Shown: positions 25,273 through 43,323 of the stretch, in pieces
Position numbering within the stretch: the first letter of the stretch is position 1
How the letters are laid out: every line of letters begins with the position of its first letter
Source: Sphaerisporangium siamense
GTDB taxonomy: Bacteria; Actinomycetota; Actinomycetes; Streptosporangiales; Streptosporangiaceae
Length of the DNA stretch: 64,000 nucleotides
Assembly: GCF_014205275.1 (NCBI RefSeq)
Contig: NZ_JACHND010000001.1
Location: 1,984,001-2,048,000 of the forward strand
Reading direction: 5' to 3'
Translations under genes and position numbers: made by a program
The notes under the pieces: generated by a model
What the model saw: only the letters and a program-made list of their open reading frames with translations
Database searches by the model: none
What the model was told of the DNA's origin: nothing

Positions 25273-25294
25273 GACGCTACGTTTGGATTGGTTC

Positions 25295-26638: not shown

Positions 26639-26705
26639 CCATCCGCAGGGAAGCGAAATATCACGAGCTGGGCTGACCACGTGGTTGAACATTGACGGAG
26701 TACTC

Positions 26706-27319: not shown

Positions 27320-27871
27320 TCACGAGTTCGCGAGGCGGGAGATCGCCGCGCAGATCGTGGTTATGCGTTCTGGGAGGGGGCCGGCGGGGATGTCGATGAG
27401 GTTGTAGCCGAAGGATTGGTAGGTCTGCTCGTGGAGGTGTTCGAACGTCAGGGAGTCTTCGAAGCTGATCTGGCGGGCGTTGCTGGGTTCGCAGAAGCCT
27501 AGGTTGCGGATGAAGAACACATGTCGGTCGTAGACCTGCTCTTGGGTGATGCGTTCGATCTCGGCGGAAAGGGTCGGCGGGATCGGGTGGCCGACGTAGG
27601 TGCTGAGGGCGTGGGTGCAGACCGGGGAGCGGTCGAAGAACTGGACGGACGGGGCGGTGGTGCTCGATGCCATCTGCCGCTGTCGTTGCAGGGCCACGAT
27701 CTTGTCGATGAAGGCCGGGCGGGTCCACGGCTCGGCGTCGCCGCTTGCCTGTTCGTCCGCGATGATCGCCGTGGCCGCCTCCTCGACCGTCGCGTATCCC
27801 AGCGTTGCCAGCCGCCGCAGGATCGTGGTCTTGCCCGAGCCCGGGGTGCCGGTGAGGATGTAGCGCTTCAT
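27320..27871 (-). CDS. P-loop ATPase / kinase-like protein (AAA_28 type)
   Basis: A 183-residue protein with a Walker A motif at the N-terminus (MKRYILTGTPGSGKTTILRR), a Walker B-like QFFDRSPVC, and an Arg-containing lid region (HVFFIRNLGFCEPSNARQIS). The size and order fit small AAA_28 or nucleotide-kinase-like proteins, some of which phosphorylate small molecules or tRNA. It converges on the HD gene with 29 bases between stops. The ATG is preceded by aaagg at a long distance. The frame is open another 144 codons upstream, but that part has no family resemblance and contains the decayed repeat. Confidence 0.75.
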   Translation of the reverse strand: MKRYILTGTPGSGKTTILRRLATLGYATVEEAATAIIADEQASGDAEPWTRPAFIDKIVALQRQRQMASSTTAPSVQFFDRSPVCTHALSTYVGHPIPPTLSAEIERITQEQVYDRHVFFIRNLGFCEPSNARQISFEDSLTFEHLHEQTYQSFGYNLIDIPAGPLPERITTICAAISRLANS

Positions 27872-28029
27872 AGCGGTCTGGTCGCCTTTCGGGCGGGTCG
27901 CGGCGTCGTGATCATTCGAGAGGGGATGGCGGCTGTTTCGCGGCCTGCTCCTGGGAGCGTCGAGGCGATCGTCGGCGTGGTCGACGGTCCAGATGGCGAG
28001 GGCGTTCATCGGGCCGTCCACCAGCACCC

Positions 28030-28115
28030 CTATGGGAACAGGCCGCCGTCCGTACCAGCCAGACGCTCGTGGCACTGTATTCCACACGAGATATGTGTCC
28101 GCGGCGGCCGCGCAT
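28030..28115 (+). pseudogene. Decayed fragment of the XRE/TPR regulator gene
   Basis: The stretch starting tgggaacaggccgccgtccg reproduces 26027-26100 of the regulator gene on the same strand, with about nine of ten bases identical over roughly 70 bases by eye. A 2-base insertion (cgagatatgtgtcc versus cgagacgtgtcc) breaks the frame, and nothing recognisable of the rest of the gene remains on either side. It looks like the relic of a tandem or paralogous copy. Confidence 0.75.
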
Positions 28116-28340
28116 GAGCCGGCCAGGTTACGCAGCAGCACCAGCCTGGTACAAGCGGCGGCTCGGCTCCCTTTCGGCGTTTCCTCCCGAGTGACGCCGA
28201 GGCCGTGGGGAACTCGCGGAGCATCGGTACATGTACATCGAGCATCGGGCCGAGTTGGCTGGGATCTTGCCGTGCGAGCGGGACCCGGCTGTCGGCGCGT
28301 CACAGCCTGACGGTCTCACCCGGTCACGGCAGGTGACGTT

Positions 28341-28394
28341 ATGATGCAGCGCATGTGTGACGTGTCGTGGCTGGGCTGGTGGCGCTCCCCGTAG
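28341..28394 (+). CDS. Trp-rich leader peptide of the trpS attenuator
   Basis: A 17-codon frame reads MMQRMCDVSWLGWWRSP and stops at TAG 28392-28394. It has three Trp codons, two of them adjacent (28377-28382), in a very short peptide. Aggtg lies five bases before the first ATG, and internal ATG starts at 28344 and 28353 are alternatives. Ribosome stalling at the Trp codons when charged tRNA-Trp is scarce would prevent the downstream terminator from folding. This is how the auxiliary TrpRS gene of Streptomyces coelicolor is known to be controlled. Confidence 0.85.
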   Translation: MMQRMCDVSWLGWWRSP

Positions 28395-28419
28395 AAGCGG
28401 CCGCCTCTTAGACATGACC

Positions 28420-28446
28420 GGGCCGTTCGGATGGACGGCCCTTTTT
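28420..28446 (+). terminator. Attenuator terminator of the trpS leader
   Basis: Arms gggccgt (28420-28426) and acggccc (28435-28441) close an 8-base loop and run directly into ttttt (28442-28446), a classical intrinsic terminator and unusual in this GC-rich window. The upstream segment gcggccgcc (28397-28405) has the complementarity expected of a competing antiterminator, although I did not fold it. Confidence 0.85.
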
Positions 28447-28504
28447 CGTCCCCTGGACCAGGGCTTGTTCATCTTCCCGGCCAGACAACCCACCAGGAGA
28501 TCTT

Positions 28505-29620
28505 GTGAACACCAACCCCCAGACGGCAGGCCCCGATGCCTCTGTCTCAGGTCCCTTCCCCGACACGCTCGGGGTGTCTGCCGCACAAGCCCGCAGCGCG
28601 GTGCTGGAGGAGCTCATCCTCAAGGACCCCGGGCGGTTCCGTGTGCTGACGGGCGACCGCCCTACCGGTCGCCTGCACCTGGGGCACTACTTCGGCACGC
28701 TGCACAACCGAGTGCGTCTTCAGGACCTCGGAGTAGAGATGTTCGTGGTCATCGCGGACTACCAGGTTCTGACCGACCGCGACGTAGCGGACAACCTGAC
28801 CGGGTACGTCGAGGAACTGGTACTGGACTACCTCGCCATCGGGGTGGACCCGGCGCGCAGCACGATCTTCACGCACAGCGCCGTCCCCGCCCTGAACCAG
28901 CTGATGCTGCCCTTCCTCAGCCTCGTCTCCGTCGCCGAGCTCAACCGCAATCCCACCGTCAAGGATGAAATCAGCAACTCGCGCCAGTCCGCTGTCAGCG
29001 GCCTGATGTTCACCTATCCCGTTCACCAGGCCGCCGACATTCTCTTCTGCAAGGGCAACCTGGTTCCGGTCGGCCAGGACCAACTCCCTCACATCGAGAT
29101 CACCCGCGCCATCGCCCGCCGCTTCAACGACCGCTATGGCGGCGGCACCGCGGTATTCCCCCAGCCCGATGCCCTGCTGTCGAGCGCGGCACTGCTGCTC
29201 GGCACGGACGGAACCAAGATGAGCAAGAGCCGCCGCAACGCCATCACCCTGGCTGCCGACGAGGACGAGACCGCCCGCCTGATCAAGGGCGCCAAGACCG
29301 ACTCCGAGCGCCACATCACCTACGACCCGAGCACCCGCCCCGAGGTGTCTTCCCTCCTCCTGCTGGCAGGTCTCTGCCAGAACCGAACTCCCCAACAGGT
29401 GGCCGCCGACATCGGCTCCGCGGGAGCCGCCGCGCTGAAGAAGACCGTGACCGAGGCGGTCAACGAGTACTTGGCCCCGATCAGGGCCCGCCGAACCGAG
29501 TACGCACAGGACCCTGCCTTCCTCCGCCAGACGCTGCACGAGGGCAACGAGCGAGCCAGGGCTGTGGCTGATGCCACGCTCGCCGAGGTGCGTGCCGCCA
29601 TGAACAGCCATTACTACTGA
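28505..29620 (+). CDS. trpS: Auxiliary tryptophanyl-tRNA synthetase
   Basis: This class I synthetase charges tRNA-Trp. HIGH-type motif: PTGRLHLGHYFGTLHNRV. KMSKS motif: LLGTDGTKMSKSRRNAI. The Trp pocket region ISNSRQSAVSGLMFTYPVHQ and AADILFCKGNLVPVGQDQ is typical of the divergent actinobacterial branch that resists indolmycin and chuangxinmycin. At 371 residues it is slightly long, owing to about 25 extra N-terminal residues. GTG 28505 has aggaga upstream. The Trp attenuator in front and the adjoining indole-alkaloid cluster suggest an inducible resistant copy beside a housekeeping enzyme encoded elsewhere. Confidence 0.93.
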   Translation: MNTNPQTAGPDASVSGPFPDTLGVSAAQARSAVLEELILKDPGRFRVLTGDRPTGRLHLGHYFGTLHNRVRLQDLGVEMFVVIADYQVLTDRDVADNLTGYVEELVLDYLAIGVDPARSTIFTHSAVPALNQLMLPFLSLVSVAELNRNPTVKDEISNSRQSAVSGLMFTYPVHQAADILFCKGNLVPVGQDQLPHIEITRAIARRFNDRYGGGTAVFPQPDALLSSAALLLGTDGTKMSKSRRNAITLAADEDETARLIKGAKTDSERHITYDPSTRPEVSSLLLLAGLCQNRTPQQVAADIGSAGAAALKKTVTEAVNEYLAPIRARRTEYAQDPAFLRQTLHEGNERARAVADATLAEVRAAMNSHYY

Positions 29621-29632
29621 CAACCCCGGACC

Positions 29633-29675
29633 GGTGAGACACCGCCGTCCTGGTGTGACGGATCGGTGTCTCACC
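29633..29675. terminator. Bidirectional terminator hairpin
   Basis: Perfect 11-base arms ggtgagacacc (29633-29643) and ggtgtctcacc (29665-29675) contain an inner 5-base stem (ccgtc, gacgg). It separates the convergent trpS and LysR genes. Confidence 0.85.
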
Positions 29676-29697
29676 AACCAGCTCCTCCGCCCGCCTG

Positions 29698-30612
29698 TCA
29701 GGTCCTCCGAAGAGCGTTCTGAACGGCGGGATCCTGGGCTACGGCCTGGGCGCACCTGACGGCGAGACGCACCAGTTCGGAATCGGAGCCCTCGCGCCAT
29801 GCGAGGGACAACCGGGCCGCAGGCACATCCGCCACGGGTATGAAGACGATGTCCTGACGGTGCTGGACGGTCATGACGGTGGCGGGGACGAGGACGGCTG
29901 CGTTCTCGAGGGCCACGAGGTCGATGGCCTCGTCGATGCGAGTTGCGGTCGGATGTTCCTTCCATACGGGATTGCCGGGGCGCACCCCACCCCAGAAGTC
30001 GGACGACTCGGGTGACCCTCCAGCGGGTCGGATGATCGGAACCTCGTTCAGATCGTCGATCAACACGGAGTCACGGCCGGCCAGCCTGTGGGTGGACCGC
30101 AGACAGACGACCCGCGGCAACATGGCGACGGTGGCGCTGTCGAGGCCGGCGTAGTCCGCGGGGTCCAGCACGAAGGACACATCAGCATCCCCTCCACGCA
30201 AGCATGCTGTCTGGTCTGTCCACTGCACGTGCCTCGGCACTACCTGATACTCCGAGTGTTCTTCGCGAATGCGTTCGATGGTCCGGTGTGCCAGAGGGTG
30301 GCAGACGGCTGGCCGGAAGGCGACGACGAGCCGTTCGATCTCCTGCCCTCCTGCCTGCCGCGCACTGTCGACCGCCACCTGCCAATGCCGCAGCAAGCTC
30401 TTCGCGTGAGCCAAGAAGTCGCGGCCGGCCGACGTGAGTTCGACCCTATTACCGGTTCTGTCCAGGAGTTGGAGACCCAGCCCTCTTTCGAGTTGACGAA
30501 TCGCCACGCTCAACGGCGGCTGCGTCAGGTGTAGGCGGGAGGCGGCTCGGGTGAAGCCGCCTTCCTCGGCTACCGCAACGAAGTACCTCAGATGCCGTAA
30601 GCCCAGTTCCAT
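29698..30612 (-). CDS. LysR-family regulator of the sulfur-indole cluster
   Basis: A 304-residue LysR regulator. The HTH is MELGLRHLRYFVAVAEEGGF, then TRAASRLHLTQPPLSVAIRQ and RTGNRVELTSAG. The effector domain carries CLRGGDADVSFVLDP and ALENAAVLVPATVMTV. LysR proteins bind T-N11-A sites and answer to a pathway intermediate or product. It is divergent from the MFS gene with an AT-rich gap between them, so it most likely controls the exporter and the operon behind it. ATG 30612 gives the normal N-terminus. Confidence 0.93.
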   Translation of the reverse strand: MELGLRHLRYFVAVAEEGGFTRAASRLHLTQPPLSVAIRQLERGLGLQLLDRTGNRVELTSAGRDFLAHAKSLLRHWQVAVDSARQAGGQEIERLVVAFRPAVCHPLAHRTIERIREEHSEYQVVPRHVQWTDQTACLRGGDADVSFVLDPADYAGLDSATVAMLPRVVCLRSTHRLAGRDSVLIDDLNEVPIIRPAGGSPESSDFWGGVRPGNPVWKEHPTATRIDEAIDLVALENAAVLVPATVMTVQHRQDIVFIPVADVPAARLSLAWREGSDSELVRLAVRCAQAVAQDPAVQNALRRT

Positions 30613-30737
30613 ACATATATTATATCGTCCCATTCACAGTGTGTATTGGACTGCATGGATATATCTCACGTATGTTCATGTATGCGCGCCGCCTCCATCG
30701 AATCCTCGGCTCTTTTACGGGAACCGTGGAAATTCCC
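30613..30737. promoter_or_regulatory. AT-rich divergent promoter region (LysR / exporter)
   Basis: The stretch is strikingly AT-rich for this window (for example tacatatattatat near 30612-30625 and ggatatatctcacgtatg near 30657-30674). Placed between divergent LysR and MFS genes, it probably holds both promoters and the LysR-binding sites. I could not assign single elements. Confidence 0.6.
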
Positions 30738-32252
30738 ATGGGAGGTCCGTCTTTGTCGCATGGAGTGGATTTCAAGGCATCACGGTCGAGTGGGATGGCG
30801 CTTTCGGGCTCACGGCTCACAGGCGTGAATTCGCAGTCGACGGGCATGACGATGACGCTGATCGCCACCGGTGTCTCCATGCTGTCGTACGCACTCATGC
30901 AGACCATGGTGGTCCCGGCCCTGCATGTGCTGCAGGTACAGCTCCGCACGACCCCGACGTGGTCGGCATGGATCCTGAGCGTGTTCCTGCTGACCAGTGC
31001 GGCGAGCACGCCCGTGCTGAGCAAGCTCGGAGACCGCTACAGCAAACGCAATGTTCTGTTGCTGGTTCTCGCCGCCTACCTGATCGGTACGCTCGGTTGT
31101 GCCGCGGCAGGCAATATCGGGGTTCTGATCGCGTGTCGTGCAGTGCAGGGAGTCAGCCTCGCGGCCCTTCCCCTGTCATTCGGCATCCTGCGCGACGCGC
31201 TTCCCGAGCATCGGCTGCGTTCGGGACTCGGGCTGGTTTCAGGGACCATCGGTGTGGGTGCCGGTATCGGACTGGTCGTGGGAGGTCTGGTCGTCGACCA
31301 CCAGTCATGGCGCTGGCTCTTCGCGATCGCCGCGGTACTGATCCTGGCGGCGATGGTCCTCGTCGCGAAGTACGTTCCGGACCAGCGGAACGGATCCAGC
31401 GAGCCGGTGGACGTGCCCGGGGCGGTGCTCCTGGCCCTGGTCCTCGTGGCGCTACTGCTCGCGCTGACTCAGGGCACCTCGTGGGGGTGGACGGCCAAAG
31501 GAACCCTGGCTCTGTACGGGGCCGCCGTGGTTCTCACGGGATTGCTGGTCATCGTCGAACGGAAGTCGGTCGCCCCCCTGATCGACCCCGCAGTCGTGGC
31601 CGGCCGCTCCCTGCTCTCGGTTCACGGTGCGGCGTGCCTGTTCGGCGTGGCCTCGTTCCTGTTCTACGTCCTGCTACCGGCGTATGCCCAGACCTCGCCA
31701 GACCAGGGGCTGCCGGGAGGCGGGACGGTTGGCTACGGGCTGGGAACCGATGTCACCGTGGCGGGTTTGCTCCTTCTGCCCGGCTCATTGGCACTGTTAC
31801 CGGCGGGACAACTCGCGGGTTTGATGCAACGCCTCACGTCTGTGCGTGCGACGCTCGCATCAGGCTTTGCCGCCATGGCTGTCGGGGCGATTTCGCTGTG
31901 CTTGTGGAACGGCAACGGGTGGCAACTGGCGGCCGGGTACCTGGTCACCGGAATAGGTTCCGGACTGGTGCTGAGTGGCCTCCCGTCGGCGATCAGCGGT
32001 TTGACGGAGGTGAAACGAACCGCAACCGCCAACGGCGTGAACACGGTCGTTCGCACGGCAGGCGGCGTTGTGGGCAGTCAGCTGGCGGCCGCCTTGCTGG
32101 CTGTGTGGCACATCTCCGGTTCCGGCATACCGGCGCGGAACGGTTTCATTACCGCCTTCTGGATCGCTGCCGCTGTAGCGGCGTCCGGGGCGCTGTTGTG
32201 CTTGGCCGGCATCAAGACCAGGACATCGCAGGAGAGGGACCAACAGGCGTGA
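30738..32252 (+). CDS. MFS exporter (DHA2 / EmrB-like) of the cluster
   Basis: About 504 residues with some 14 membrane helices. Signature loops: LSKLGDRYSKRNVLLLVLAA between helices 2 and 3, RAVQGVSLAALPLSFGILRD, and the motif GTIGVGAGIGLVVGGLVVDH. The organisation fits DHA2 drug:H+ antiporters, so it likely exports the cluster product and contributes to self-resistance. The start is uncertain: ATG 30738, TTG 30753 after ggagg, or ATG 30846 are all possible. Its stop overlaps the next start by GTGA, so the exporter heads the operon. Confidence 0.88.
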   Translation: MGGPSLSHGVDFKASRSSGMALSGSRLTGVNSQSTGMTMTLIATGVSMLSYALMQTMVVPALHVLQVQLRTTPTWSAWILSVFLLTSAASTPVLSKLGDRYSKRNVLLLVLAAYLIGTLGCAAAGNIGVLIACRAVQGVSLAALPLSFGILRDALPEHRLRSGLGLVSGTIGVGAGIGLVVGGLVVDHQSWRWLFAIAAVLILAAMVLVAKYVPDQRNGSSEPVDVPGAVLLALVLVALLLALTQGTSWGWTAKGTLALYGAAVVLTGLLVIVERKSVAPLIDPAVVAGRSLLSVHGAACLFGVASFLFYVLLPAYAQTSPDQGLPGGGTVGYGLGTDVTVAGLLLLPGSLALLPAGQLAGLMQRLTSVRATLASGFAAMAVGAISLCLWNGNGWQLAAGYLVTGIGSGLVLSGLPSAISGLTEVKRTATANGVNTVVRTAGGVVGSQLAAALLAVWHISGSGIPARNGFITAFWIAAAVAASGALLCLAGIKTRTSQERDQQA

Positions 32253-32959
32253 ACCGTGCCCCGCGTGTGACTTCTACTACGGATGACGGCTTGGCCAGAA
32301 CGGCAGCAGACGGCGCAGCACCGTTCGGCGACCTGCCGGCGACCGTCCGCTTTGCGGTCAAGCCCGTCATCCGTTTCATCGGCGATGCGCTGCGAGAATA
32401 CCAAGAATGTCTGGACAGCCGCGACGCCGACGGAGTGCCGAGCCATCTGCCGCGTGCCTCGGCTTTGCTGTTCGGACAGGCGGACGGCGACGAGATAGCG
32501 ATCAGCGATATCGAGTTCGTACCGAATGTTCGCGACAGCGACGAGAGCGTCATGGCCGAATTCGAAGCGACGATCGTTCCACGGTTCGGCGAGGTCTACA
32601 GGAACCCGAAGCGAGGGTTCTGGTCAGACGAAAAGGGCGTCCTGCAGGCGATTATGAAACAGTCCGCGAACGGCCTGGAGCTGATGGGCTCCATACATTC
32701 ACATCCGAACTGGCATGAAATCGGCCCGCGGCACGAACGATACCAGAGGCTGAGTGAGAAACCGACGAAGATCGATGACTATCTCTTCCGTCAGTCGTGC
32801 TGGCCGGTGAACGTCATCTGGTATGTGCATGAGAGCGGTGGCGGTATCGCGCATCGGGTTGCGGGCTGGCGACCAGGGCCGGATCAGTGCGACAGGCTTG
32901 ACATAAGGATTCCGCCGGCGATCCATGAGCAGTTCGACGTCCGCATCGAGGAGGAATAA
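32249..32959 (+). CDS. JAMM/MPN-type protein, likely sulfur-transfer partner of the CysO-like domain
   Basis: A 236-residue protein with the metal-binding HxH core in MGSIHSHPNWHEIGPRHERY. The preceding LFGQADGDEIAISDIEFVPN resembles the first half of MPN domains. The usual SxxD ligand a few residues after HSHP is not at the canonical spacing. A Ser and Asp occur later, in LSEKPTKIDDYLF. JAMM proteins of this kind (Mec+, QbsD) act on -GlyGly sulfur carriers, and in chuangxinmycin biosynthesis such a protein transfers the sulfur itself. The GTG start overlaps the exporter stop, and the carrier-P450 gene begins three bases after its stop. Confidence 0.8.
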   Translation: MNRAPRVTSTTDDGLARTAADGAAPFGDLPATVRFAVKPVIRFIGDALREYQECLDSRDADGVPSHLPRASALLFGQADGDEIAISDIEFVPNVRDSDESVMAEFEATIVPRFGEVYRNPKRGFWSDEKGVLQAIMKQSANGLELMGSIHSHPNWHEIGPRHERYQRLSEKPTKIDDYLFRQSCWPVNVIWYVHESGGGIAHRVAGWRPGPDQCDRLDIRIPPAIHEQFDVRIEEE

Positions 32960-32962
32960 GAG

Positions 32963-34474
32963 ATGCCCGATGTCAAACTTCCCGCAGCGTTCCATACCCT
33001 GACCGGCGGACGACGGTTGTTGCCCGTCGAGGGCGGCAATGTCCGGGAGGTGCTGGTCAGGCTCGACCAGGCTTGCCCCGGTGTCCTTGAGCGACTCATG
33101 GACCTGGACGGGTCGGTGAAACGCTGCGTCAACGTCTACAGAAACGACAGCGACATCAGGAGCCTCGACGGCCTCGAAACGAAAGTTCAGCACCACGACG
33201 TCATCTGGATAGTGCCGGCGGTGGCGGGTGGCAGCGAAGTCACGAGCCGAGGAGTCACGATGACGGAGGTCATTCCCACCGAATTCTTCACCGAGCCCGG
33301 CTCGAATCCACACGCGGTGGCCGCGGAGTACAGGTCCAGGTGCCCGGTTCATCGGATCAATGTTCCCCCCGGCGCCGACGCGTACGCGGTCCTCGGAAAC
33401 AGAGTCGTCGAGGAAGCGCTCGGCGACTCGCGCCTGTCCAAGCAAGTCGAGAATCTGCCCGCCCGGTACCGGGACAAGGCCGTGGCCAACAGTCTTCTCG
33501 TGGCCGGAAACCTGGGGTTCGCCGACGATCCCAAGCACGCCCGGCTGAAGAAGCCCATCAGCCGGGCGTTTCTGCCGGCCACGGTCGCCCGGCTGCGCCC
33601 GCGCATCCAGGACATCGTCGATGACCTCATCGACGCCTTCCCTGAGAATGGTGAAATCGACCTGCTGAGCGCCTTCGCTCTTCCGATGCCGCTTACCGTG
33701 ATCTGCGAGTACCTAGGGATACCGGTAACGGACAGGCCGCTGTTTCTGGAGTGGAGTTACATCCTCAGCCAGGATCCGCTCCAGCATGACGAGGCCGAAC
33801 TGAAGGCAGCGAGCGAAGAGTTCACGGACTATTTCACCGAACTCGTGGCTGAACGCCGTAAGGACCTGGGGGACGACCTGCTGAGCGAGATCATCAGGGC
33901 CAGGGACGCCGGCGCGTACAGCGAAAGAGAGCTGCTGTCGACGCTCCTCCTGCTGATCATCGCCGGCCACAAGACGGTCGCCAACATGATCGGTAACGGA
34001 ACAGCGCTGTTGCTCCGCCATCCCGAGCAGCTCGAGATGATCCGAGCCACCCCCGAGCTCATTCCCTCGGCGATCGAGGAGATCCTGCGCTACGAAGGGT
34101 CGGCGGCTTGGGCCTCGCTGCGGGTCGCGGCGGAGGACATGCGGCTCGGCGGAGTGAACATACCCAAGGGCAGCTTCGTGCACCTGTCGCTGTCCAGCGC
34201 GGGTCGTGATCCGGACGTGTACGACGACCCGGACCGTTTCGATGTCACCCGGTCCCCGAACCGCCATCTGTCCTTCGGCCACGGCCCCCACTTCTGCATC
34301 GGCGCTCCGCTGGGCCGGCTCCAGGGCGAGATCGCCTTCTCCTCGCTGCTGCGGCGACTGCCGCGGTTCGAACTCGCCGTGCCTCCGGAGGAGGTCACCT
34401 GGCTCGGTGACAGCTCGCTCAGCCGGGGCCTTGAGGCCCTCCCCATTCGTGTAGGGGGGAGGTTACCGCGATGA
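32963..34474 (+). CDS. Fusion of a CysO-like ubiquitin-fold sulfur carrier and a cytochrome P450
   Basis: A single 503-codon frame. Residues 1-90 form a ThiS/MoaD/CysO beta-grasp domain ending in VPAVAGG, with the di-glycine at 89-90 whose C-terminus would carry a thiocarboxylate. Ten linker codons follow, then Met100 (ATG 33260) begins a complete P450. This has the I-helix LLLIIAGHKTVANMIG, the ExxR motif EEILRYE and the haem loop SFGHGPHFCIGAPLGR. A gaggag site sits five bases before ATG 33260, so a separate P450 may also be made by internal initiation. The carrier would need cleavage after Gly90 to work. The P450 is inferred to close the C-S ring. Confidence 0.88.
   Translation: MPDVKLPAAFHTLTGGRRLLPVEGGNVREVLVRLDQACPGVLERLMDLDGSVKRCVNVYRNDSDIRSLDGLETKVQHHDVIWIVPAVAGGSEVTSRGVTMTEVIPTEFFTEPGSNPHAVAAEYRSRCPVHRINVPPGADAYAVLGNRVVEEALGDSRLSKQVENLPARYRDKAVANSLLVAGNLGFADDPKHARLKKPISRAFLPATVARLRPRIQDIVDDLIDAFPENGEIDLLSAFALPMPLTVICEYLGIPVTDRPLFLEWSYILSQDPLQHDEAELKAASEEFTDYFTELVAERRKDLGDDLLSEIIRARDAGAYSERELLSTLLLLIIAGHKTVANMIGNGTALLLRHPEQLEMIRATPELIPSAIEEILRYEGSAAWASLRVAAEDMRLGGVNIPKGSFVHLSLSSAGRDPDVYDDPDRFDVTRSPNRHLSFGHGPHFCIGAPLGRLQGEIAFSSLLRRLPRFELAVPPEEVTWLGDSSLSRGLEALPIRVGGRLPR
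33249..33262 (+). promoter_or_regulatory. Internal ribosome-binding site and start codon for the P450 moiety
   Basis: Gaggag (33249-33254), five bases of spacer and ATG (33260-33262) lie in frame within the fused gene, exactly between the sulfur-carrier and P450 domains. The site is as strong as those of ordinary genes in the window, so the P450 is probably also, or mainly, made alone. Confidence 0.65.
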
Positions 34475-35427
34475 CGGTAGCGGGCGGCCCGAGCATTGCC
34501 GTGGTGGGAGCCGGCGCGGTAGGCGGCTATTTCGGCGGCCGGCTCGCCGCAGCCGGGTACGACGTGCGATTCCTGGCCCGCGGCGAAAACCTCGCCTCGG
34601 TGAAGCGAGATGGGTTGCGCATCACCAACGGCTCAGATGACTGGCGTGTGCCCAAGGTGCGGGCGTCCGCCGATCCGGAGCGCCTGGGCGAGGTCGACTT
34701 CGTGCTGTTCTGCGTCAAGACCTCGCAGTTGCCGCCGGCCCTCGACGCACTGGGCCCGCTGGTCGGCGAGAACACCGCCGTGGTCACGGTGCAGAACGGG
34801 GTGGAAGCCCCTGAGCAGGTCGCAGCCAGGATCGGCCGCGGACGGGTGTTACCCGGGGCCGCCAGGATCGTTGCCTCGATGGCAGGTCCGGGCGAGGTAC
34901 GGCACGTGGGCCCGCCCGGTGCACTGGGCTTCGCAGAGTGGGACAGCACCGTGTCCGACCGGGTGACACGACTACGCGCCGTGCTGCGCGAGGCTTCGGT
35001 GACGGTGCTGGAGCCGAGCGATGTCTGGGTCGGCCTGTGGGCGAAATTCCTGTTGGTGGTGCCGATCGGCAGCCTTGGAGCCGCCACCGGCGGGGCGACC
35101 ATCGGGGAGCTGCGGTCGCGAACCGGCACTCGGAACATGATGATCGCCGGAATGCGGGAGATATACGAGACCGGGATCAAGCTCGGGATCGAGCTGCCGG
35201 GAGATGCGGTGGACACCGCGATAGAACTCATGGACCGGCAGTCGGCCGACGTCACCTCCTCCCTGCAACGGGACATCCTGGCGGGACGGCCGTCAGAGCT
35301 GGAAGCGTGGACCGGGGCCGTGGTCCGCCTGGCCGGCCGAGGAGGCGTGACCGTCCCGGTCCACGAGCTCCTTTACGAGCTGCTCGCCATGCTCGAATCA
35401 CGGACAACGAGGAGTTTCCATCCGTGA
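34471..35427 (+). CDS. Ketopantoate reductase-like (ApbA/PanE) 2-oxo acid reductase
   Basis: A 318-residue NADPH enzyme. The Rossmann motif is IAVVGAGAVGGYFGGRLAAA. The substrate domain has the conserved VQNGVEAPEQVA, the catalytic Lys in VWVGLWAKFLLVVPIG and the late block LQRDILAGRPSELEAW. PanE reduces ketopantoate, but in this cluster the natural substrate is more likely an indolyl 2-oxo acid (methylated indolepyruvate) reduced to a hydroxy acid before sulfur substitution. That is inferred from context. The start overlaps the P450 stop by ATGA and the stop overlaps the aminotransferase start by GTGA. Confidence 0.9.
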   Translation: MTVAGGPSIAVVGAGAVGGYFGGRLAAAGYDVRFLARGENLASVKRDGLRITNGSDDWRVPKVRASADPERLGEVDFVLFCVKTSQLPPALDALGPLVGENTAVVTVQNGVEAPEQVAARIGRGRVLPGAARIVASMAGPGEVRHVGPPGALGFAEWDSTVSDRVTRLRAVLREASVTVLEPSDVWVGLWAKFLLVVPIGSLGAATGGATIGELRSRTGTRNMMIAGMREIYETGIKLGIELPGDAVDTAIELMDRQSADVTSSLQRDILAGRPSELEAWTGAVVRLAGRGGVTVPVHELLYELLAMLESRTTRSFHP

Positions 35428-36512
35428 ATGTGGGATTCGCAGAACGTAGCACCCTTCGGGACGTGAGCGCCTACCGGGACAAGGAGTCGTCGAACGCTGA
35501 AGGTGGCTCGGACATCACCTTCGACCTGTCCAGCAACGAGCTGGTTCTCTCCCCACTGCCCACCGTGCTCGCCGCCATCGAAGAAGGGCTGCCGCGGCTT
35601 GCTCGTTACCCTGACCCCACAGCGCGGGACCTCACCAGAGCGATCGCCGGGCACTTATGCGTCTCCGCAGACGAGGTGGCAGTCGGCCCGGGAAGCGCGG
35701 GCGTGCTCCAGCAGATCCTTCTCGCGCTGTGCGGCAGGGGGGACGAAGTCGTCTACGCATGGCCGGGATTCGATGCGTATCCCCTGTTGGTCGCCATTTC
35801 GGGTGCGACCAGCGTCCACGTGCCGCTGACCGTGTCCGGAGGCCACGATCTCGATGAGATCCGCACCCGGGTGAACGCGCGGACCAGGGTGGTGATCCTT
35901 TGTTCCCCCCACAATCCGACCGGAGTCGTGATCGATCACGGCGAGTTGTGCGGCTTTCTGCGTTCGCTGCCGGATCACGTGGTCGCGGTCATCGACGAGG
36001 CGTACGTGGAGTTCCATCGGAACAGCGATCCTGCGGGCATGCCAAAGGTGCTGCGCGAGCACAGCAACGCCGTGGTACTCCGGACCTTCTCCAAGGCCCA
36101 CGGGCTTGCGGGCCTGCGGGTCGGCTATGCGGCAGGTCCACGGGAGGTCGTGGCCACCGTCCGCAAGACGGCCATACCCTTCGGAGTGACGCGCTTCGCG
36201 GAACAAGCCGCGATGCTCTCTCTGCGCAGTGAGGATGAACTGCGTGAACGTATGGCAGCGGTGACCGCGGCGCGCGACGAACTGACGGCGGATCTCGTGG
36301 ACATGGGCCTGCCCGTCCTGCCTTCCCGAGCCAACTTCGTCTGGCTACCGCTCGCCTCGGCCGCCGAGTCCTTCGCACGTGCCGCGGCTACCGCAGGGGT
36401 CAAGGTTCGCGCCTGTCCGGGACATGGTGTGCGGATCTCGGTAGGCGACGCAGAAGCACATCGAACGTTGCTGGCGGCGCTCGGCCAGAAGGACCGTGGA
36501 AACCGGCTCTGA
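35424..36512 (+). CDS. PLP-dependent aminotransferase, HisC/aromatic class
   Basis: A 362-residue fold-type I aminotransferase. The PLP lysine lies in RTFSKAHGLAGLRVGYA. Other motifs are FDLSSNELVLSPLP, GPGSAGVLQQILLALCG, SPHNPTGVVIDHGEL and VIDEAYVEF, as in histidinol-phosphate and aromatic aminotransferases. In this cluster it would convert tryptophan to indole-3-pyruvate, the presumed substrate of the methyltransferase, or act in reverse later. Start is GTG 35424 with gaggag upstream, overlapping the previous stop. Confidence 0.9.
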   Translation: MNVGFAERSTLRDVSAYRDKESSNAEGGSDITFDLSSNELVLSPLPTVLAAIEEGLPRLARYPDPTARDLTRAIAGHLCVSADEVAVGPGSAGVLQQILLALCGRGDEVVYAWPGFDAYPLLVAISGATSVHVPLTVSGGHDLDEIRTRVNARTRVVILCSPHNPTGVVIDHGELCGFLRSLPDHVVAVIDEAYVEFHRNSDPAGMPKVLREHSNAVVLRTFSKAHGLAGLRVGYAAGPREVVATVRKTAIPFGVTRFAEQAAMLSLRSEDELRERMAAVTAARDELTADLVDMGLPVLPSRANFVWLPLASAAESFARAAATAGVKVRACPGHGVRISVGDAEAHRTLLAALGQKDRGNRL

Positions 36513-36563
36513 GAACTCCGGGTCCGCCCTCACACAGATCAAGACACCGAAGGTGAGAATTCC

Positions 36564-38435
36564 GTGAGAATCTTGATGATCGCCATGCCGTGGCAAGGGC
36601 TCGACACACCCTCCAGCGCACTGGGAATACTGGGTCCGTGCATCCGCAGGAATGCTGTCGACTGGACCGTCGAGGAGTTATACGCCAACCTCCGATGGGC
36701 CGAACGGCTGATGCGTGAGAGCGACGGATCCATCACGTGCGAGGATTACGGGAATGTCGCGGATCAGGTCTTCCACGGCGTAGGCGACTGGATATTCACC
36801 CCAGCGCTGTACGATGTCGACAGCTATCAGGTCGTCGAGTACTCGCGGTTTCTCGAACAGCGGGACATAGATCCGGCGCTCCCGGTTAGAATGCAGAAGT
36901 TCGCCCGCGGATTCATCCAGGATCTCGCTGCCGAGATCGTCGCCGATCCACCCGACGTAGTCGGGTTCACGAGCACCTTCATGCAGAATGTGCCGTCGCT
37001 TGCTCTGGCAAGGGCGCTGAAGAAGCTCGCACCGGGCATCCTCACGGTGCTGGGCGGCAGCAACTGCGACGGAGCGCAGGGCCCCGCCCTGCACCGGAGT
37101 TTCGAGCAACTCGACTTCGTGATCAGCGGTGAGGGTGAACGGGCACTGCCCGCGTTGCTGAATCGCGTGGCCAAGGGCGAGAGCCTCGCCGACGTCGCAG
37201 GGCTCAGCTGGCGGGGGGACGACGGGCAGACGGTGGTGAATCCACCGTCCAAGGCGGCATTGCCGTTCGCCATGGTGCCCGCACCCGGTTACGACAGCTA
37301 CTTTCAGGCACTCGAAAGGTCACCCGTCCGGCATCATGTCCGTCCCATGCTGGTGCTGGAGACCTCCCGAGGCTGCTGGTGGGGAGAAGCTCATCAGTGC
37401 ACGTTCTGCGGCCTGAACGGATCGAACATCGACTTCCGGAGCAAGGCCCCTGAGCGCATCGCCCAGGAAGTTCGGGAACTGGCCGAGCGACACCGGATTC
37501 TCGATCTGGTCATGGTGGACAACATCCTCGACATGAAGTATCTCAATACGGCCATGCCTGAGTTGGCCGCCCTCGACTGCGATCTGAGAATCCACTACGA
37601 GATCAAGTCCAATATGAACCGGGAGCAGCTGAAGAAGCTCAAGGAGGCGAACGTCCTCTTCGTGCAGCCCGGTATCGAGAGCCTGAGCAGTCACGTGCTG
37701 CGGCTCATGGACAAGGGCGTCAGTGCCGCGCACAACGTGCGCATGCTGCGTGACGGACAGGATCTCGGACTCAACGTGACATGGAGCATTCTCTACGGAT
37801 TCCCCGGAGAGACCGAGGACGACTACCGCGGACTGCTCAGGAAAATGACCACACTCGAGCATCTGGAGCCGCCGACCGGGGCCTGGCGCATAGCGCTGGA
37901 GCGGTTCAGTCCCTACTTCGAGGATCCCACCCAGGGGTTCATGTTCCGCCGTCCGTCGGAAATATACGACTTCATCTACCAGATCCCACGGGATCAGCTG
38001 TACGACATGGTGTTCTTCTTCGACACCAGCATCCAGGGGATTTCGGGGCCCATCGAGGACGAAATGAAGCAGGCGTGCGGGGAATGGGCCAAGGCATATC
38101 CGCGGAGCACCCTCTGCTACTGGACCGGCGACCGAGGCCGGGTCATCATCGAGGACCGCCGTGCCAGCTGGCCGGAGGAGGTGATCGAGCTGGACGACGT
38201 CCAGAGCAACATGTACCTCGGCATGTTTCAGTGCGCCGCCCGCGAGGGCATACGCCGGCGGCTCGCCGACAGCGGGCACGTAGTCCGCGACGAGGAACTC
38301 GAGGAAATACTTCGCTACTTCATCGACCGGGGCCTGGCGTTCGAGGACGAGGGGCGTTACGTCAGCGTCGCCCTTGAGGTCGACCCGTATCGCCGAAAGC
38401 TGGTCAGCGGCAAGGAGGTGGAGGCGTCGCTATGA
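36564..38435 (+). CDS. Cobalamin-binding radical SAM C-methyltransferase
   Basis: A 623-residue class B radical SAM enzyme. Residues about 125-200 form a B12-binding Rossmann domain (DVVGFTSTFMQNVPSLALAR, LTVLGGSNCDGAQG). The Fe-S cluster motif is RGCWWGEAHQCTFCGLNG (Cys 271, 279 and 282). The CX7CX2C spacing instead of CX3CX2C is the hallmark of the family named RiPP maturation radical SAM protein 1. No precursor peptide is near, so a small-molecule substrate is likely. In chuangxinmycin biosynthesis an enzyme of this type puts the methyl group on the side-chain carbon. Start is GTG 36564. It overlaps the next gene by ATGA. Confidence 0.92.
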   Translation: MRILMIAMPWQGLDTPSSALGILGPCIRRNAVDWTVEELYANLRWAERLMRESDGSITCEDYGNVADQVFHGVGDWIFTPALYDVDSYQVVEYSRFLEQRDIDPALPVRMQKFARGFIQDLAAEIVADPPDVVGFTSTFMQNVPSLALARALKKLAPGILTVLGGSNCDGAQGPALHRSFEQLDFVISGEGERALPALLNRVAKGESLADVAGLSWRGDDGQTVVNPPSKAALPFAMVPAPGYDSYFQALERSPVRHHVRPMLVLETSRGCWWGEAHQCTFCGLNGSNIDFRSKAPERIAQEVRELAERHRILDLVMVDNILDMKYLNTAMPELAALDCDLRIHYEIKSNMNREQLKKLKEANVLFVQPGIESLSSHVLRLMDKGVSAAHNVRMLRDGQDLGLNVTWSILYGFPGETEDDYRGLLRKMTTLEHLEPPTGAWRIALERFSPYFEDPTQGFMFRRPSEIYDFIYQIPRDQLYDMVFFFDTSIQGISGPIEDEMKQACGEWAKAYPRSTLCYWTGDRGRVIIEDRRASWPEEVIELDDVQSNMYLGMFQCAAREGIRRRLADSGHVVRDEELEEILRYFIDRGLAFEDEGRYVSVALEVDPYRRKLVSGKEVEASL

Positions 38436-39160
38436 GCGCGTTGATGGGCATCGACGAACTCAGGGACCGAGGTTCGGACGAGCGACGGGTACCGGCCGGC
38501 CGGCCCGCGACACTGACGCTGACCCTCGGATCCGACTGGGCTGAACTCCCGGCCGCCACCGAACTGGCGGCTCTACTGCGCCGGGTGCCTGTCGCTGGGG
38601 TGTGGCTGGCGGAGGCGGTCGACTTCTCGGCACTCCCCAGTCACGTGATCGTGCGAATCGTCGCGCTGCTTCGCGAATGTTCCTCGATCGGTGCCAGGGT
38701 CACCTGGTCGCTGATCCTGGGCGCCGAACAGCTCGGCCTGGTCCCGCGGCTCGATCATCTGCCCGCCCCCGACAGCGTCACGGTGGTGGGGGAAGGAACT
38801 CCGTCCGTCGGAGAATGGCGGTCGGCCGGCAATTTTGGCCTCTTCTACTTCCGCAAGGGTCCGAACTTCCTGTTCGTCGTCGATCAGCGCCCCGAATCCA
38901 GCCGCGAGATCGTTATGGACGATCCCATTCTGAGGGATGTATTCCTCGAAGCCGTGGAGGGATGTGCGTGGTCCGAGGTGGCCCGGAGTTCGCGATACGC
39001 CGCCGCCGCGCGGGATCTGGTGGATAAGGGCCTTGTGATGCGCGTCGGGGATCATTGCGTGGCGCTACCAGTGCGCATGCGTTCATGGCCCCTGGGCGTG
39101 GCTCTCCTAGGGGGGACCCTGGCTTCAGCTGGGAAGAAGTCGGAAGATGTTACTTCGTGA
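38432..39160 (+). CDS. DUF5825-like partner of the radical SAM methyltransferase
   Basis: A 242-residue soluble protein, translationally coupled to the methyltransferase (ATGA). It has a STAS-like N-terminal half (VAGVWLAEAVDFSALPSHVI, RIVALLRECSSIGARVTWSL) and then FGLFYFRKGPNFLFVVDQRP and AARDLVDKGLVMRVGDH. The assignment to DUF5825 rests on the pairing and on my memory that DUF5825 proteins accompany this radical SAM family. As a partner it may be needed for activity or stability of the methyltransferase. No catalytic residues are evident. Confidence 0.7.
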   Translation: MSALMGIDELRDRGSDERRVPAGRPATLTLTLGSDWAELPAATELAALLRRVPVAGVWLAEAVDFSALPSHVIVRIVALLRECSSIGARVTWSLILGAEQLGLVPRLDHLPAPDSVTVVGEGTPSVGEWRSAGNFGLFYFRKGPNFLFVVDQRPESSREIVMDDPILRDVFLEAVEGCAWSEVARSSRYAAAARDLVDKGLVMRVGDHCVALPVRMRSWPLGVALLGGTLASAGKKSEDVTS

Positions 39161-39289
39161 CCGGCTCGGTCTCAGTGTGCGTTCAGGTGTGACACGCATG
39201 GTTACGTCGCCATTGCCGACCGAATCGACCGTCTCGCCGGATGCCGATTCACCGATCGACTCACCCCGCGCGTGCCGTCCCCGGGGCGT

Positions 39290-39957
39290 GAACCCGGTCA
39301 CGACGAGCCGAACAGCCCGCCGAGCACCATCGGGTTGCCCCAGTCGGTCGCGCCGCCGCCGTACGCTGGATTCCGTACGTGATCGCGGCCAGCAGGGCGC
39401 CGGCGCCGGCCGCGAACGTGATGTTGCCGAACCAGTCGATCCTGCCGCCACGCTGGCCGGACACGGTCTCGCGCAGGCTCAGGTACGACCAGATCGTGCC
39501 CGCCACGCTGATCGGCACGCTCACCCAGAACACCGCGCGCCAGTCGATGACGGCGCGCAGGCCGCCGGCGAGCAGGCCGAGGAACTGCCCGGCGAGCGCG
39601 GTGATCTGGTTGACGCCGAGCGCCATGCCGCGCTGGCGGGCCGGGAACGCGTCGGTCAGGATGGCGGCGGAGTTGGCGGTGAGCATGGACCCGCCGAACG
39701 CCTGGACGATGCGCCACAAGATCAGCCACAGCGCCCGCGCCCTCCCTGAACGGGTCGAGCGACAGGGCGATCGACGCGCACGCGAAGATCAGGAAGCCGA
39801 GGTTGTAGATCCTGACCCGGCCGGACATGTCGCCGAGCCTGCCGAGGACCACCACGAACACGGCCGACACCAGCAGATAGCCGAGGATCATCCAGAGCAT
39901 CCAGCGGTGACCCAGACCGGCACGCGGCCATCCCCGCCGCTTCACCCCCGGACGCAC
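39290..39957 (-). pseudogene. Broken MFS (EmrB/QacA-like) transporter remnant
   Basis: Read in three frames it recovers one transporter. First comes LGHRWMLWMILGYLLVSAVF and VVLGRLGDMSGRVRIYNLGF. After a frameshift near 39740 there is WRIVQAFGGSMLTANSAAIL and GMALGVNQITALAGQFLGLL. After a second shift near 39360 there is YGGGATDWGNPMVLGGLFGS. Both the first 40-50 residues and the C-terminal half are missing. It lies just past the end of the biosynthetic cluster and is probably a relic of rearrangement there. Confidence 0.85.
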
Positions 39958-39965
39958 CTGCGAGA

Positions 39966-40004
39966 CCTGGGGCGCCTCGTGACGGTCACGTCGGGCGCCC
40001 CAGG
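39966..40004. terminator. Long hairpin terminator downstream of the CdtB-like gene
   Basis: Perfect 11-base arms cctggggcgcc (39966-39976) and ggcgccccagg (39994-40004) with an inner stem cgtgac/gtcacg. It follows the minus-strand stop at 40065. Confidence 0.85.
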
Positions 40005-40064
40005 CATGCTCCTCGGTCCATCGCGCGGTGACCTCACCGGTCCCGGCGCCGCGTGGGAGCGCGG

Positions 40065-43000
40065 TCAGGGGTGGAAGGTCTTGAAGTAGTCGGCAGGGAG
40101 TTGGTTGAGCCAGGCGTGGGTGACGCCGGTCCAGCCGATGCGCACGAAGTCGGCCTTGCCGTCGCCGTCCATGTCGGCGAACTGGACGTCCTGGGGCGGC
40201 ACGTCGGCGTCATCGGCGATCTTGCCGATGTCGCGGTAGGTGCCTCCGAGGCCCTTGGGCCCTTCGTTGATCCAGGCCCGGGCGCCGCCGTTGGCGGTGA
40301 TCAGGATACGGTCGGCGCGCTTGTCACCGTTGATGTCGGCGTATCTGATCTCCCGGGGGAGGAGCAGAGCACCGCTGATCGTTTGAGGGGAATCCCATTT
40401 CAGGTACTGGCGGGTGCGCTCGACCGTGTACCCCTGGTTGTACCAGGCGGTCGTCGTGCCGTCCGGCTCGATCAGCAGGTAGTCGTCCCGCCCCCCTCCG
40501 GTGACGTCGGCGAACCGGATTTTGGTGGCGGGGTCGATGTCCAGCTTGGATCCCGCGGAACCTTCGGTGCGGACACTCGCTCCGCCGGCGAACTTCTCCT
40601 TGTCCATGCACATCCGTGAACCGGAAGGGTTGTCGTCCTTCCAGGTGTAGGCGGACACACCCCCTTGGAGGTCGACGACCATGCAGTCGGGGAAGCCGTC
40701 CCCGTCGACGTCGCCGAAACGCAACTGGTTGCCGACGGCCCCGGCCCTGGGCTCGTAGGAGTTCTGGCCCTCCACCATCGGGATCCAGTCATCCCCGGAC
40801 GGGCCGCCGTTCCACCAGAACCGGAAGTTCTGGTCCTTGTCCACGACCACGAACTCGGCCTTGCGGTCCTTGTTGACGTCCGTCAGCCAGAACCGGCTGC
40901 TGGAGGGGAACTGCCGGGCCTGGATGACGCCCCGGTCGTCCCATCCCTCGCCCAGCTTGTTGTTCCCGTCCACGGGCAGGCCCGCGCCGTCGTCCTTGGA
41001 GCCGCACGGGCTGGAGCCCACGTTGGCGGCCGGCGGGTTCGGTTCCTGGATCCATCCGTGGTCGTTGGCCTCTTCGGCCGCCTTGCCGAACGCCTCGGCG
41101 ATCTTGTCGTAGCCCGCGTCGGTGGGATGGACGCCGTCAGAGCGCATCTCGGACAGTTTCAGCGCACTGATGTCGGTGTACACCACCCGCAGGCCTCGTG
41201 CCACGAGCCGGTCCACCATCCCGGGGATCTGGGCGGTGAAGGCCTCGCCCCGCGCGTTCGCGTTGGGATTGTCCTTCGGCTTGAGGGGCTGTATTCCCGA
41301 CACCAGGACGGTGACGCCTGGAGAGTCCTTGCTGACCTGGTCGATCAGTGCCTCCAGTCGCCCGATCGCGGTGTCCATCTGGACGTTGAAGACGACGTCG
41401 TTACCACCCGCGATCAGGGTGATGAGGTTGGGCCGGTAGGTCGGGACCGCGCATCCGGCCTTGTCGGCGATCTGACTGATCGTGAAACCGCGCCAGCCTT
41501 CGATGTCACGGTCGTCCATCGTCCCTACGCGCACCGAACCGACCCAGTCCACTCTGGGGGTGTCGTCGGCGGCGCCGGCGACCGCCTTACCCGCGGCCTT
41601 CTTGCCGATGTTCTCCTCCGCGGCAGCGGAGAAGATGGCCTTCTGGTTGAACCTGCCAAGTCCGTGGAACCTGTATTCAGCGGAGTCCCGGAAACCGTTG
41701 CCGTCCGAACTGCCCTCGCCATAAGTGGTGGACGACCCCAGACCCATCACGCTCAGACTCGGCCACGGTTTGAGGTCCCACACCCCGGACGAGGTAGGCG
41801 GGCCGAGTTTCATGGGCGACTCAGGGGTTCCCGATGAGGGGAGCATCTCCTCTTGATCGTCAGGTCCCGGGGTGAGAACCTGTGACCGCGTCAGCTCCCA
41901 CTGCTGATCCGGATTGTCGGGATCACACTCACCGGTCCACACCTCGGCAGTCCCTCGCGGGATGCGCATGAGACAAAGGCTCCCCGCGCCGGAGAGGCGA
42001 TCAGACAGCAGGTACGTGTTCTGCCTGGAGGCGAAGCGCGGCACCAACTGCTCGCGGGGGCTTTCGGTCGGCGGGAAGAGCATCGGGATGACGCCGCCGA
42101 GAGTCTCCACGTTGGTCCATTTCAGCACCAGGGAATGATCACCTCCGACGAAAAGGCGGTACATCTGTCCGGGCACGGGTGCCCTGCAGTCCGGCTCCGC
42201 GGCGGCCCGCAGGCCCCACGGCGGCTGCTGACCACAGCCCGGAAGCAGGCGGATGTTCAGGCCCCAGTGGTCGGAGTCGCGTCCGAAGCGCTCGACGTGA
42301 CCGGTGCGCTGGTCCGCGTCACTCATCCAGGTCCAGTCCAGTTCGCTACCACCCTGGTGAGTGGGCTGAAACGAACGCACGATGTGCCGCTGAAAATGTT
42401 CCGGCATCCTGGCGGGGTTGGCGTTGAGGTCGGCCATCATTCTGGCGCGCTCGTGAACCGGCCGGTGATGCATGAACTGGCGGATCGTTTCCAGCACGTC
42501 TTCGGCGCCGTTGTCGCGATTTCGGCCGAGGGACGGCGCGTGGGCGTTGAACAGCCAGACGGCGCCGAATCGCACGCCCATCATCGGCCGGGGGTCGAGA
42601 TTGTCATTGTCGGCGACGTGCAGAGGGAGCTGAACGGCCTCGTCGGCGGCCTGTGGGGTCGCGATGGCCAGGCCGTTGCGTTGCTGGCCCGAATCCATGA
42701 AGTAGATGTTGACGGGCACGTGCTGGCCGCGGTCACTTCCTTGGTCCCAGCGGAACTCGGTGACCAGGCCGCCGTTGGCGCTGCGCAGTTCCCGCGTCTC
42801 GAAGGCCCTGGGCGGCGGCTCGGTGCCCGCCTCCTGGATGACCACCGCGTCCCGCCCCGCACGGATCATGGGCTGGACGACGAACGTCCAGCGGCTCTCC
42901 GTCCGCGGCCGGCCGGTTCCGGGGGCCGAGCCGGGGCCTCCCATCTGGCCGTTCATGTTCCAGGACGCGACGTCGTCCATGGGCGGGTCGTCAACCGCGG

Positions 43001-43226: not shown

Positions 43227-43323
43227 TGACTAATGAGTTCTTATTCGGGATAAATAACGTTTAGTCATGGCTTTCACGCGATGACGATCGCTCGATGGGC
43301 CCGCTTGCGGCTCCGCGCGTGCC

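What the first reader, a model, noticed from the sequence alone, without database searches (positions are those of the whole stretch)
28341..39160. Chuangxinmycin-type sulfur-indole biosynthetic cluster
Seen: in one contiguous block, resistant-type TrpRS with Trp attenuator, LysR, exporter, JAMM protein, CysO-like domain plus P450, PanE-like reductase, aromatic aminotransferase, cobalamin radical SAM with CX7CX2C cluster, and a DUF5825-like partner, mostly coupled by 4-base overlaps. Known: chuangxinmycin biosynthesis uses indolepyruvate C-methylation by a radical SAM enzyme, sulfur from a JAMM/ubiquitin-like carrier pair, and a P450 to close the C-S ring. The product inhibits TrpRS. Inference: this organism makes chuangxinmycin or a close analogue.
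Basis: partly seen in the sequence, partly recalled or inferred. Interest (0 to 1): 0.92.

Follow-up and report, generated by a model that had tools for sequence, protein, structure and literature searches.

The report
Chuangxinmycin cluster with fused sulfur carrier
This soil-type bacterium carries a set of genes for the sulfur-containing antibiotic chuangxinmycin, in which the small ubiquitin-like protein that carries the sulfur is encoded as one chain with the ring-closing enzyme, so it should have to be cut free before it can work.

Summary
In detail: 28341-39160 encodes a complete chuangxinmycin-type cluster. Its P450 is 376 of 403 residues identical to CxnD of Actinoplanes tsinanensis, and every enzyme class of the published pathway is present. 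I found six more clusters in other actinobacteria. A relative in the same genus lacks the block and has an intact transporter gene where the window has scraps of it, so the cluster was probably gained.

In five of seven clusters the genes are separate, and the carrier always ends in a 6-10 residue cap starting with Ser. In two (window, Labedaea), on opposite sides of a fully supported split, the cap has become the whole P450. I infer cleavage at GG|S, as in MoaX. The cluster's JAMM-like protein has Arg where JAMM proteases have Glu (7 of 7; weak alignment), so the housekeeping JAMM protease may be the cutter.

A new variant of a known cluster. Product, cleavage and cutter are untested.

The parts
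28025..39265 (.). segment that carries the whole cluster and is absent from sister genome G612
   Evidence: left flank 27501-28024 (88%) and right scraps 39266-39307 and 39307-39899 align to G612, this segment does not
28341..28394 (+). Trp leader peptide MMQRMCDVSWLGWWRSP
   Evidence: same WWRS-x-stop ending in L003, L004, L142
28420..28446 (+). intrinsic terminator of the attenuator (7-bp stem, T5)
   Evidence: a competing antiterminator fold at -13.0 kcal/mol when the leader side is masked and the second arm not yet made
28505..29620 (+). second tryptophanyl-tRNA synthetase, presumed self-resistance
   Evidence: TIGR00233; 34% identical to the housekeeping copy; His45 to Gln
29698..30633 (-). 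LysR-family regulator
   Evidence: PF00126, PF03466; no homologue at E 1e-4 in the stretches held of the six other clusters
30795..32252 (+). DHA2-type MFS exporter (start uncertain; longest ORF from 30639)
   Evidence: PF07690; no homologue at E 1e-4 in the stretches held of the six other clusters
32249..32959 (+). JAMM-like sulfurtransferase (CxnF/Cxm3 type)
   Evidence: Prok-JAB matched by 7 of 7 homologues at E up to 1 (best 6.2e-5; window 0.0057, below the curated cut-off); HxHP and later T-x2-D conserved, residue at the usual Glu is Arg
32963..33232 (+). ubiquitin-like sulfur carrier domain ending in Gly-Gly (CxnE type)
   Evidence: PF02597; aligns with chain 3dwg_C up to AVAGG
33233..33259 (+). 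junction SEVTSRGVT after Gly-Gly; proposed cut between Gly90 and Ser91
33260..34474 (+). P450 domain (CxnD), with an internal ATG and GAGGAG upstream
   Evidence: 376/403 identical to 6kfw CxnD
34471..35427 (+). PanE/ApbA-like reductase (CxnC type)
   Evidence: PF02558, PF08546
35424..36512 (+). HisC-like PLP aminotransferase (CxnB type)
   Evidence: PF00155, NF002878
36564..38435 (+). [quoted passage not shown]
   Evidence: TIGR03975 562 bits, PF02310, PF04055
38432..39160 (+). DUF5825 partner protein (CxnA1 type)
   Evidence: PF19142
39266..39899 (-). scraps of a DHA2 MFS gene (outside the cluster)
   Evidence: intact 584-aa gene at the same site in sister G612 (L150:9415-11169-)

Best explanation
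The block is a chuangxinmycin/norchuangxinmycin cluster, probably acquired horizontally. Pathway by homology: the aminotransferase turns Trp into indolepyruvate; a thiocarboxylated ubiquitin-like carrier plus the JAMM-like protein put sulfur on it; the PanE-like enzyme reduces the thione; the P450 closes the C-S ring; the B12 radical SAM enzyme with DUF5825 adds the methyl. A second TrpRS behind a Trp attenuator protects the producer: when the drug starves the cell of Trp-tRNA, the ribosome stalls on the Trp codons of the leader and the terminator is avoided. The carrier is encoded only as the N-terminal part of a carrier-P450 fusion. It must be cut after Gly-Gly (GG|S) before a housekeeping E1 (MoeZ-like) can charge it. 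The cut frees both the carrier and the P450. Shown: gene content, homology, fusion, conservation. Inferred: product, horizontal gain, cleavage, the cutter, resistance, attenuation.
For: P450 376/403 identical to CxnD; families of all genes; published pathway (PMC12087186 passages). Block absent from G612. Fusion: one ORF in the window and in Labedaea L003, where GG-S runs straight into the P450 sequence DVLPTEFF with no Met left. Caps in the 5 unfused clusters: SGTARIEESR, SATVRS, SGEPGGRGSR, SGEPRS, SEPGSAREAR, all starting with Ser. L101's separate P450 starts MSDVLPTEYF, so a GG|S cut in Labedaea would give nearly the native end. Carrier domain under purifying selection in the fused genes (window-L004 dN 0.128, dS 0.879; L003-L101 0.231, 0.813). 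A ThiF-family E1 and a Prok-JAB protease beside a CysO-type carrier are in the window's genome. Precedents: MoaX is cut at Gly82/Ser83 and needs it (PMC4326299 abstract); DRJAMM cuts MoaD-MoaE (PMC8832034 passages); capped carriers need a JAMM protease (PMC6006322 section 7). Tree favours two separate fusions.
Against: No product, transcript or protein data. The window fusion rests on one assembly; a 2-base error would unfuse it, though there is no run of three equal bases between Gly-Gly and the ATG. The window keeps an internal ATG with a GAGGAG, so free P450 may be made anyway. The cluster JAMM-like protein does not align significantly with housekeeping JAMM by profile (0.15% probability). 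Housekeeping CysO-type carriers could in principle serve instead. The attenuator's leader is missing in 3 of 7 clusters, its fold energy is not exceptional, and once the second terminator arm is made the terminator is the best fold even with the leader side masked (-20.2 kcal/mol), so antitermination would depend on timing. Low GC is not confined to the block.
Confidence: 0.78

Rival explanations
1. The fusion is cut by the cluster's own JAMM-like protein, which then also acts as the sulfurtransferase.
For: It sits next to the carrier in 7 of 7 clusters; it keeps the zinc-ligand pattern H, H, D; QbsD does this job in thioquinolobactin synthesis according to PMC6006322.
Against: The residue aligned to the JAMM Glu is Arg in 7 of 7 and Ser is Thr in 7 of 7 by three alignment modes, which suggests a weak or lost peptidase.
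Confidence: 0.4
2. The fusion is cut by the housekeeping JAMM protease (Mec+ type), and the cluster protein is only a sulfurtransferase.
For: A Prok-JAB protease with intact Glu and HSH...S-x2-D is present in all 5 genomes looked at; the CysO-type carrier beside it is itself capped in 4 of 5; PtmS1, such a protease, is needed for thioplatensimycin (PMC6006322 section 7).
Against: JAMM proteases can be partner-specific (CsRpn11 and CsJAMM, PMC6043591 passages).
Confidence: 0.4
3. The window fusion is a sequencing or assembly error and the organism has separate genes with an ATGA overlap, as L004 does.
For: The junction is 2 bases shorter than in L004, and the start signal of the P450 is kept.
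Against: No run of three equal bases in the junction; a separate, linker-free fusion exists in Labedaea, from another genome project.
Confidence: 0.12
4. The cluster makes a different thio-indole, or norchuangxinmycin only, or is silent.
For: Methylation is incomplete even in the known producer (PMC12087186). Only the P450 could be compared with a characterised enzyme of the pathway.
Against: All pathway classes present, rSAM and DUF5825 ORFs intact, P450 93% identical.
Confidence: 0.15

Closest known systems
cxn/cxm cluster of Actinoplanes tsinanensis CPCC 200056 (chuangxinmycin)
   Same: same enzyme classes; P450 376/403 identical to CxnD; the names A1, A, B, C, D, E, F fit the window order read backwards (F, E-D, C, B, A, A1), if they follow position
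   Different: window carrier and P450 are one ORF; PMC12087186 treats CxnE and CxnD as separate proteins. Different host family (inferred)
MoaX of Mycobacterium tuberculosis and MoaD-MoaE of Deinococcus radiodurans
   Same: ubiquitin-like sulfur carrier fused at Gly-Gly to its partner enzyme; MoaX is cut at GG|S and the cut is needed
   Different: partner is a cytochrome P450 of a natural-product pathway, not MoaE; the carrier is CysO-like; cleavage not shown here
Capped sulfur carriers: QbsE/QbsD and PtmS2/PtmS1
   Same: carrier with residues after Gly-Gly, paired with a JAMM protein
   Different: PtmS2 and PtmS3 caps are two and one residues; here 6-10 residues or a whole enzyme
Attenuator-controlled auxiliary TrpRS (Vecchione and Sello 2010, title seen in a reference list)
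   Same: second, drug-resistant TrpRS gene behind a ribosome-mediated attenuator
   Different: here part of a producer's own cluster; resistance and induction untested

Membership tests
chuangxinmycin (cxn) cluster | P450 CxnD that closes the C-S ring | tested here: met
   376/403 identical to 6kfw
chuangxinmycin (cxn) cluster | ubiquitin-like carrier with Gly-Gly and JAMM-like sulfurtransferase | tested here: met
   the JAMM match is weak (window E 0.0057) but 7 of 7 homologues hit Prok-JAB at E up to 1
chuangxinmycin (cxn) cluster | aminotransferase, NAD(P)H reductase, B12 radical SAM methylase and partner | tested here: met
   family level only
chuangxinmycin (cxn) cluster | second, resistant TrpRS | tested here: inconclusive
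   second TrpRS present, pocket residue His45 changed; resistance not measured
chuangxinmycin (cxn) cluster | makes chuangxinmycin | not testable with these tools
   needs LC-MS
JAMM/MPN+ metalloprotease | E...HxHP...S-x2-D active-site set (motif recalled) | tested here: not met
   HxHP and D kept, Ser is Thr, Glu aligns with Arg in 7 of 7; the alignment itself is weak, so I call the protein JAMM-like only
sulfur-carrier fusion that needs cutting (MoaX kind) | carrier fused in frame after Gly-Gly to an enzyme | tested here: met
   window and L003
sulfur-carrier fusion that needs cutting (MoaX kind) | cleavage at Gly-Gly required for function | not testable with these tools
   needs protein work
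ribosome-mediated Trp attenuator | leader peptide with tandem Trp codons | tested here: met
   window, L003, L004, L142 of 7 clusters
ribosome-mediated Trp attenuator | competing antiterminator and terminator hairpins | tested here: inconclusive
   terminator passes the filter in 2 of 5 screened; antiterminator best only before the second arm is made; window energy z -1.22

The most novel reading that the evidence does not exclude
A bacterial counterpart of ubiquitin-ribosomal protein precursors in antibiotic synthesis: the 'cap' of a ubiquitin-like sulfur carrier has twice, independently, become the pathway's own P450, so that one cut at GG|S matures the carrier and releases the enzyme in equal amounts. 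The cluster's JAMM-like protein has given up peptidase chemistry (Glu to Arg) for sulfur transfer, and the cell's housekeeping JAMM protease does the cutting.
Probability: 0.35. Interest if true: 0.68.

Novelty: new variant of a known kind. Interest (0 to 1): 0.5.

Why it matters
Chuangxinmycin is an old antibiotic with antitubercular activity (PMC12087186 abstract). Seven clusters in what appear to be four actinobacterial families give enzyme variants for making analogues. The fusion gives a clean, testable case of how a ubiquitin-like carrier is matured in bacteria, and of how a protease fold may have become a sulfurtransferase. The empty site in a close relative suggests a fairly recent gain.

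Tried and rejected
Structure prediction of the JAMM-like protein was switched off, so the fold could not be checked. Profile comparison of it with housekeeping JAMM proteins gave no significant match; the residue mapping rests on three MAFFT modes. PDB sequence searches found no JAMM relative and only distant radical SAM relatives. Plasmid searches at E 1e-60 gave only matches below 60% identity (37 and 44 records). Four further hits at the E-value cuts are P450s at 48-60% identity: G453 and G701 (neighbours not looked at), and G746 and G776, which have no other cluster gene at E 1e-4 within about 9 kb either side (L103, L104). The 68 other loci match the P450 half only, and I did not look at their neighbours. 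Rfam found nothing in the window at its gathering scores. GC content was considered as a mark of the insert and dropped: the near flanks are low too. First alignments A2 and A4 were misaligned or on the wrong strand and were replaced by A3 and A5.

The tree lacks JAMM rows for L003 and L142 and PanE rows for L101, L102, L139 and L142, because my patterns missed them. L102's P450 is missing from the P450 dN/dS table for the same reason. L139 and L142 were not in the TrpRS residue table, and were not screened for a terminator. The empty site was looked at in one relative only (G612); the stretch held of G611 shares just one flanking gene.
Full report
What is there. The P450 half of ORF 32963-34474 is 376 of 403 residues identical to the solved CxnD of Actinoplanes tsinanensis. 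The published pathway (PMC12087186: abstract, passages and one section read) needs an aminotransferase CxnB, a carrier CxnE with sulfurtransferase CxnF, a reductase CxnC, P450 CxnD and a B12 radical SAM methylase CxnA with CxnA1. All have a counterpart here, in the order F, E-D, C, B, A, A1.

Where it came from. The window lies in an 8.5-Mb genome of two contigs. Its MoeZ-like protein is closest to Nonomuraea among nine named comparisons (90.1%), so I take the host to be Streptosporangiaceae-like; no Actinoplanes was among the nine. A relative in the same genus, G612, aligns with about 41.5 of the 64 kb in 12 pieces of 150 bases or more, at 80-97% DNA identity, but 28025-39265 is missing there. 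In its place G612 has about 2 kb, including most of a HxlR-like regulator, a short oxidoreductase and part of an intact 584-aa MFS gene (the first two named by eye). The window keeps only scraps of that MFS gene (39266-39307 and 39307-39899), so a gain in the window fits better than a loss in G612. The region is variable in general: 24634-26705 and 39900-43308 also fail to align. GC is 62-68% in the bins of the block, but 64% at 24-28 kb and 66% at 40-42 kb too, against 67-76% elsewhere, so GC does not mark the block's ends.

How common it is. With the fusion protein as query I found the cluster in 1 of 396 genomes of a phylum sample (the window's own), 1 of 341 of the window's family (own; two other matches are P450s at 48%), 2 of 354 of a Micromonosporaceae-like family (two other matches have no other cluster gene nearby), 2 of 390 of Labedaea's family and 2 of 392 of a sample of Streptomyces MMG1121's genus. 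The genome-contig scan returned 70 loci, of which 2 cover both halves of the query and are clusters: Labedaea rhizosphaerae L003 and Streptomyces sp. MMG1121 L004; these recur. That makes seven clusters with the window. Two layouts exist: TrpRS upstream and an aminotransferase present (window, L004, L142), or radical SAM first and no aminotransferase at E 1e-4 in the stretch held (L003, L101, L102, L139). LysR and MFS were found only in the window's cluster.

The fusion. In the window the carrier's AVAGG is followed in frame by SEVTSRGVT-MTEVIPTEFF, the start of CxnD. In Labedaea it is followed by SDVLPTEFF with no Met. On a tree of concatenated proteins the two fused clusters fall on opposite sides of a split with 100% support, which favours two separate fusions. 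The fused carrier domains are still under purifying selection. Thiocarboxylation needs a free C-terminal Gly (PMC3227635 passages; PMC6006322 section 7), so the fusion should have to be cut. MoaX is cut at exactly GG|S and needs it (PMC4326299 abstract), and a JAMM protease cuts the Deinococcus MoaD-MoaE fusion (PMC8832034 passages). The window keeps an ATG with GAGGAG in front of the P450, so some free P450 may also be made directly.

Who cuts. All seven cluster JAMM-like proteins keep H-x-H-P and the later Asp, but have Thr for Ser, a longer gap between them, and Arg where the five housekeeping JAMM proteins have Glu. The profile comparison is not significant, so this is a lead, not a result. 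That this Glu is the catalytic general base, and the name Mec+, are recalled. A CysO-type carrier beside a Prok-JAB gene is present in all five genomes looked at. Of the 17 other ThiS-fold carriers in those genomes, the 10 ThiS- or MoaD-like ones end at Gly-Gly; of 7 CysO-like ones 5 are capped, and of the 5 beside a Prok-JAB gene 4 are capped (Labedaea's is not). This fits cells that routinely trim capped CysO-like carriers. I hold the two cutters about equally likely.

Self-protection. The extra TrpRS sits behind a leader with three Trp codons and a terminator. With the leader side masked and the second terminator arm not yet made, a 38-nt stretch folds as an antiterminator at -13.0 kcal/mol; once that arm is there the terminator is the best fold in every case I computed (-18 to -20 kcal/mol with masking), so antitermination would depend on timing. 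The leader peptide is present in window, L003, L004 and L142, and not found in L101, L102 or L139. A terminator passing my filter was found in 2 of the 5 screened (window, L003). Of the drug-contact residues listed in PMC12093056 (passages), His45 is Gln in 5 of 5 cluster enzymes aligned but His in the window genome's housekeeping copy; Leu7, Ala42 and Gln132 are shared with that copy and so do not explain resistance. Attenuation of an auxiliary TrpRS gene is known (title only).

Novelty. The cluster is a known kind. In the listings of the searches I made and the passages I opened I saw no carrier-P450 fusion and no chuangxinmycin producer other than A. tsinanensis and engineered hosts; the library lacks the key subscription papers, so this is weak evidence. 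The fusion is a new variant whose logic has precedent in MoaX.

Noticed in passing
L102:10602-12932 (-): In one Micromonosporaceae-like cluster DUF5825 and the JAMM-like protein lie in one open frame of 777 codons stop to stop, a second possible fusion.
   Followed up: partly
39266-39899: Scraps of a DHA2 MFS gene that is intact in sister G612 (L150:9415-11169).
   Followed up: yes
L109, L110, L111, L112: CysO-type carriers beside a Prok-JAB gene carry residues after Gly-Gly (AR, MA, longer AFGF... tails), whereas the ThiS and MoaD types read end at Gly-Gly.
   Followed up: partly
L004:7991-9930 and L142:7806-9629: In two Streptomyces-type clusters the leader-TrpRS unit lies about 0.2 and 0.1 kb upstream of the JAMM gene on the same strand, so an attenuator there might also control the biosynthetic genes.
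   Followed up: no
40065-43226 (-): 1053-aa secreted-looking protein with lipase-like and FG-GAP-like stretches (named by eye), found at E 1e-50 in 1 of 11 genomes of the genus (own); a 70% relative of its C-terminal half lies elsewhere in the same genome.
   Followed up: partly
L103, L104: P450s 54-60% identical to CxnD in two Micromonosporaceae-like genomes without the other cluster genes nearby; possible relatives with other substrates.
   Followed up: no
25283-26638: NsdA-family TPR-like regulator (NF053720); the stretch 24634-26705 around it does not align with sister G612.
   Followed up: no
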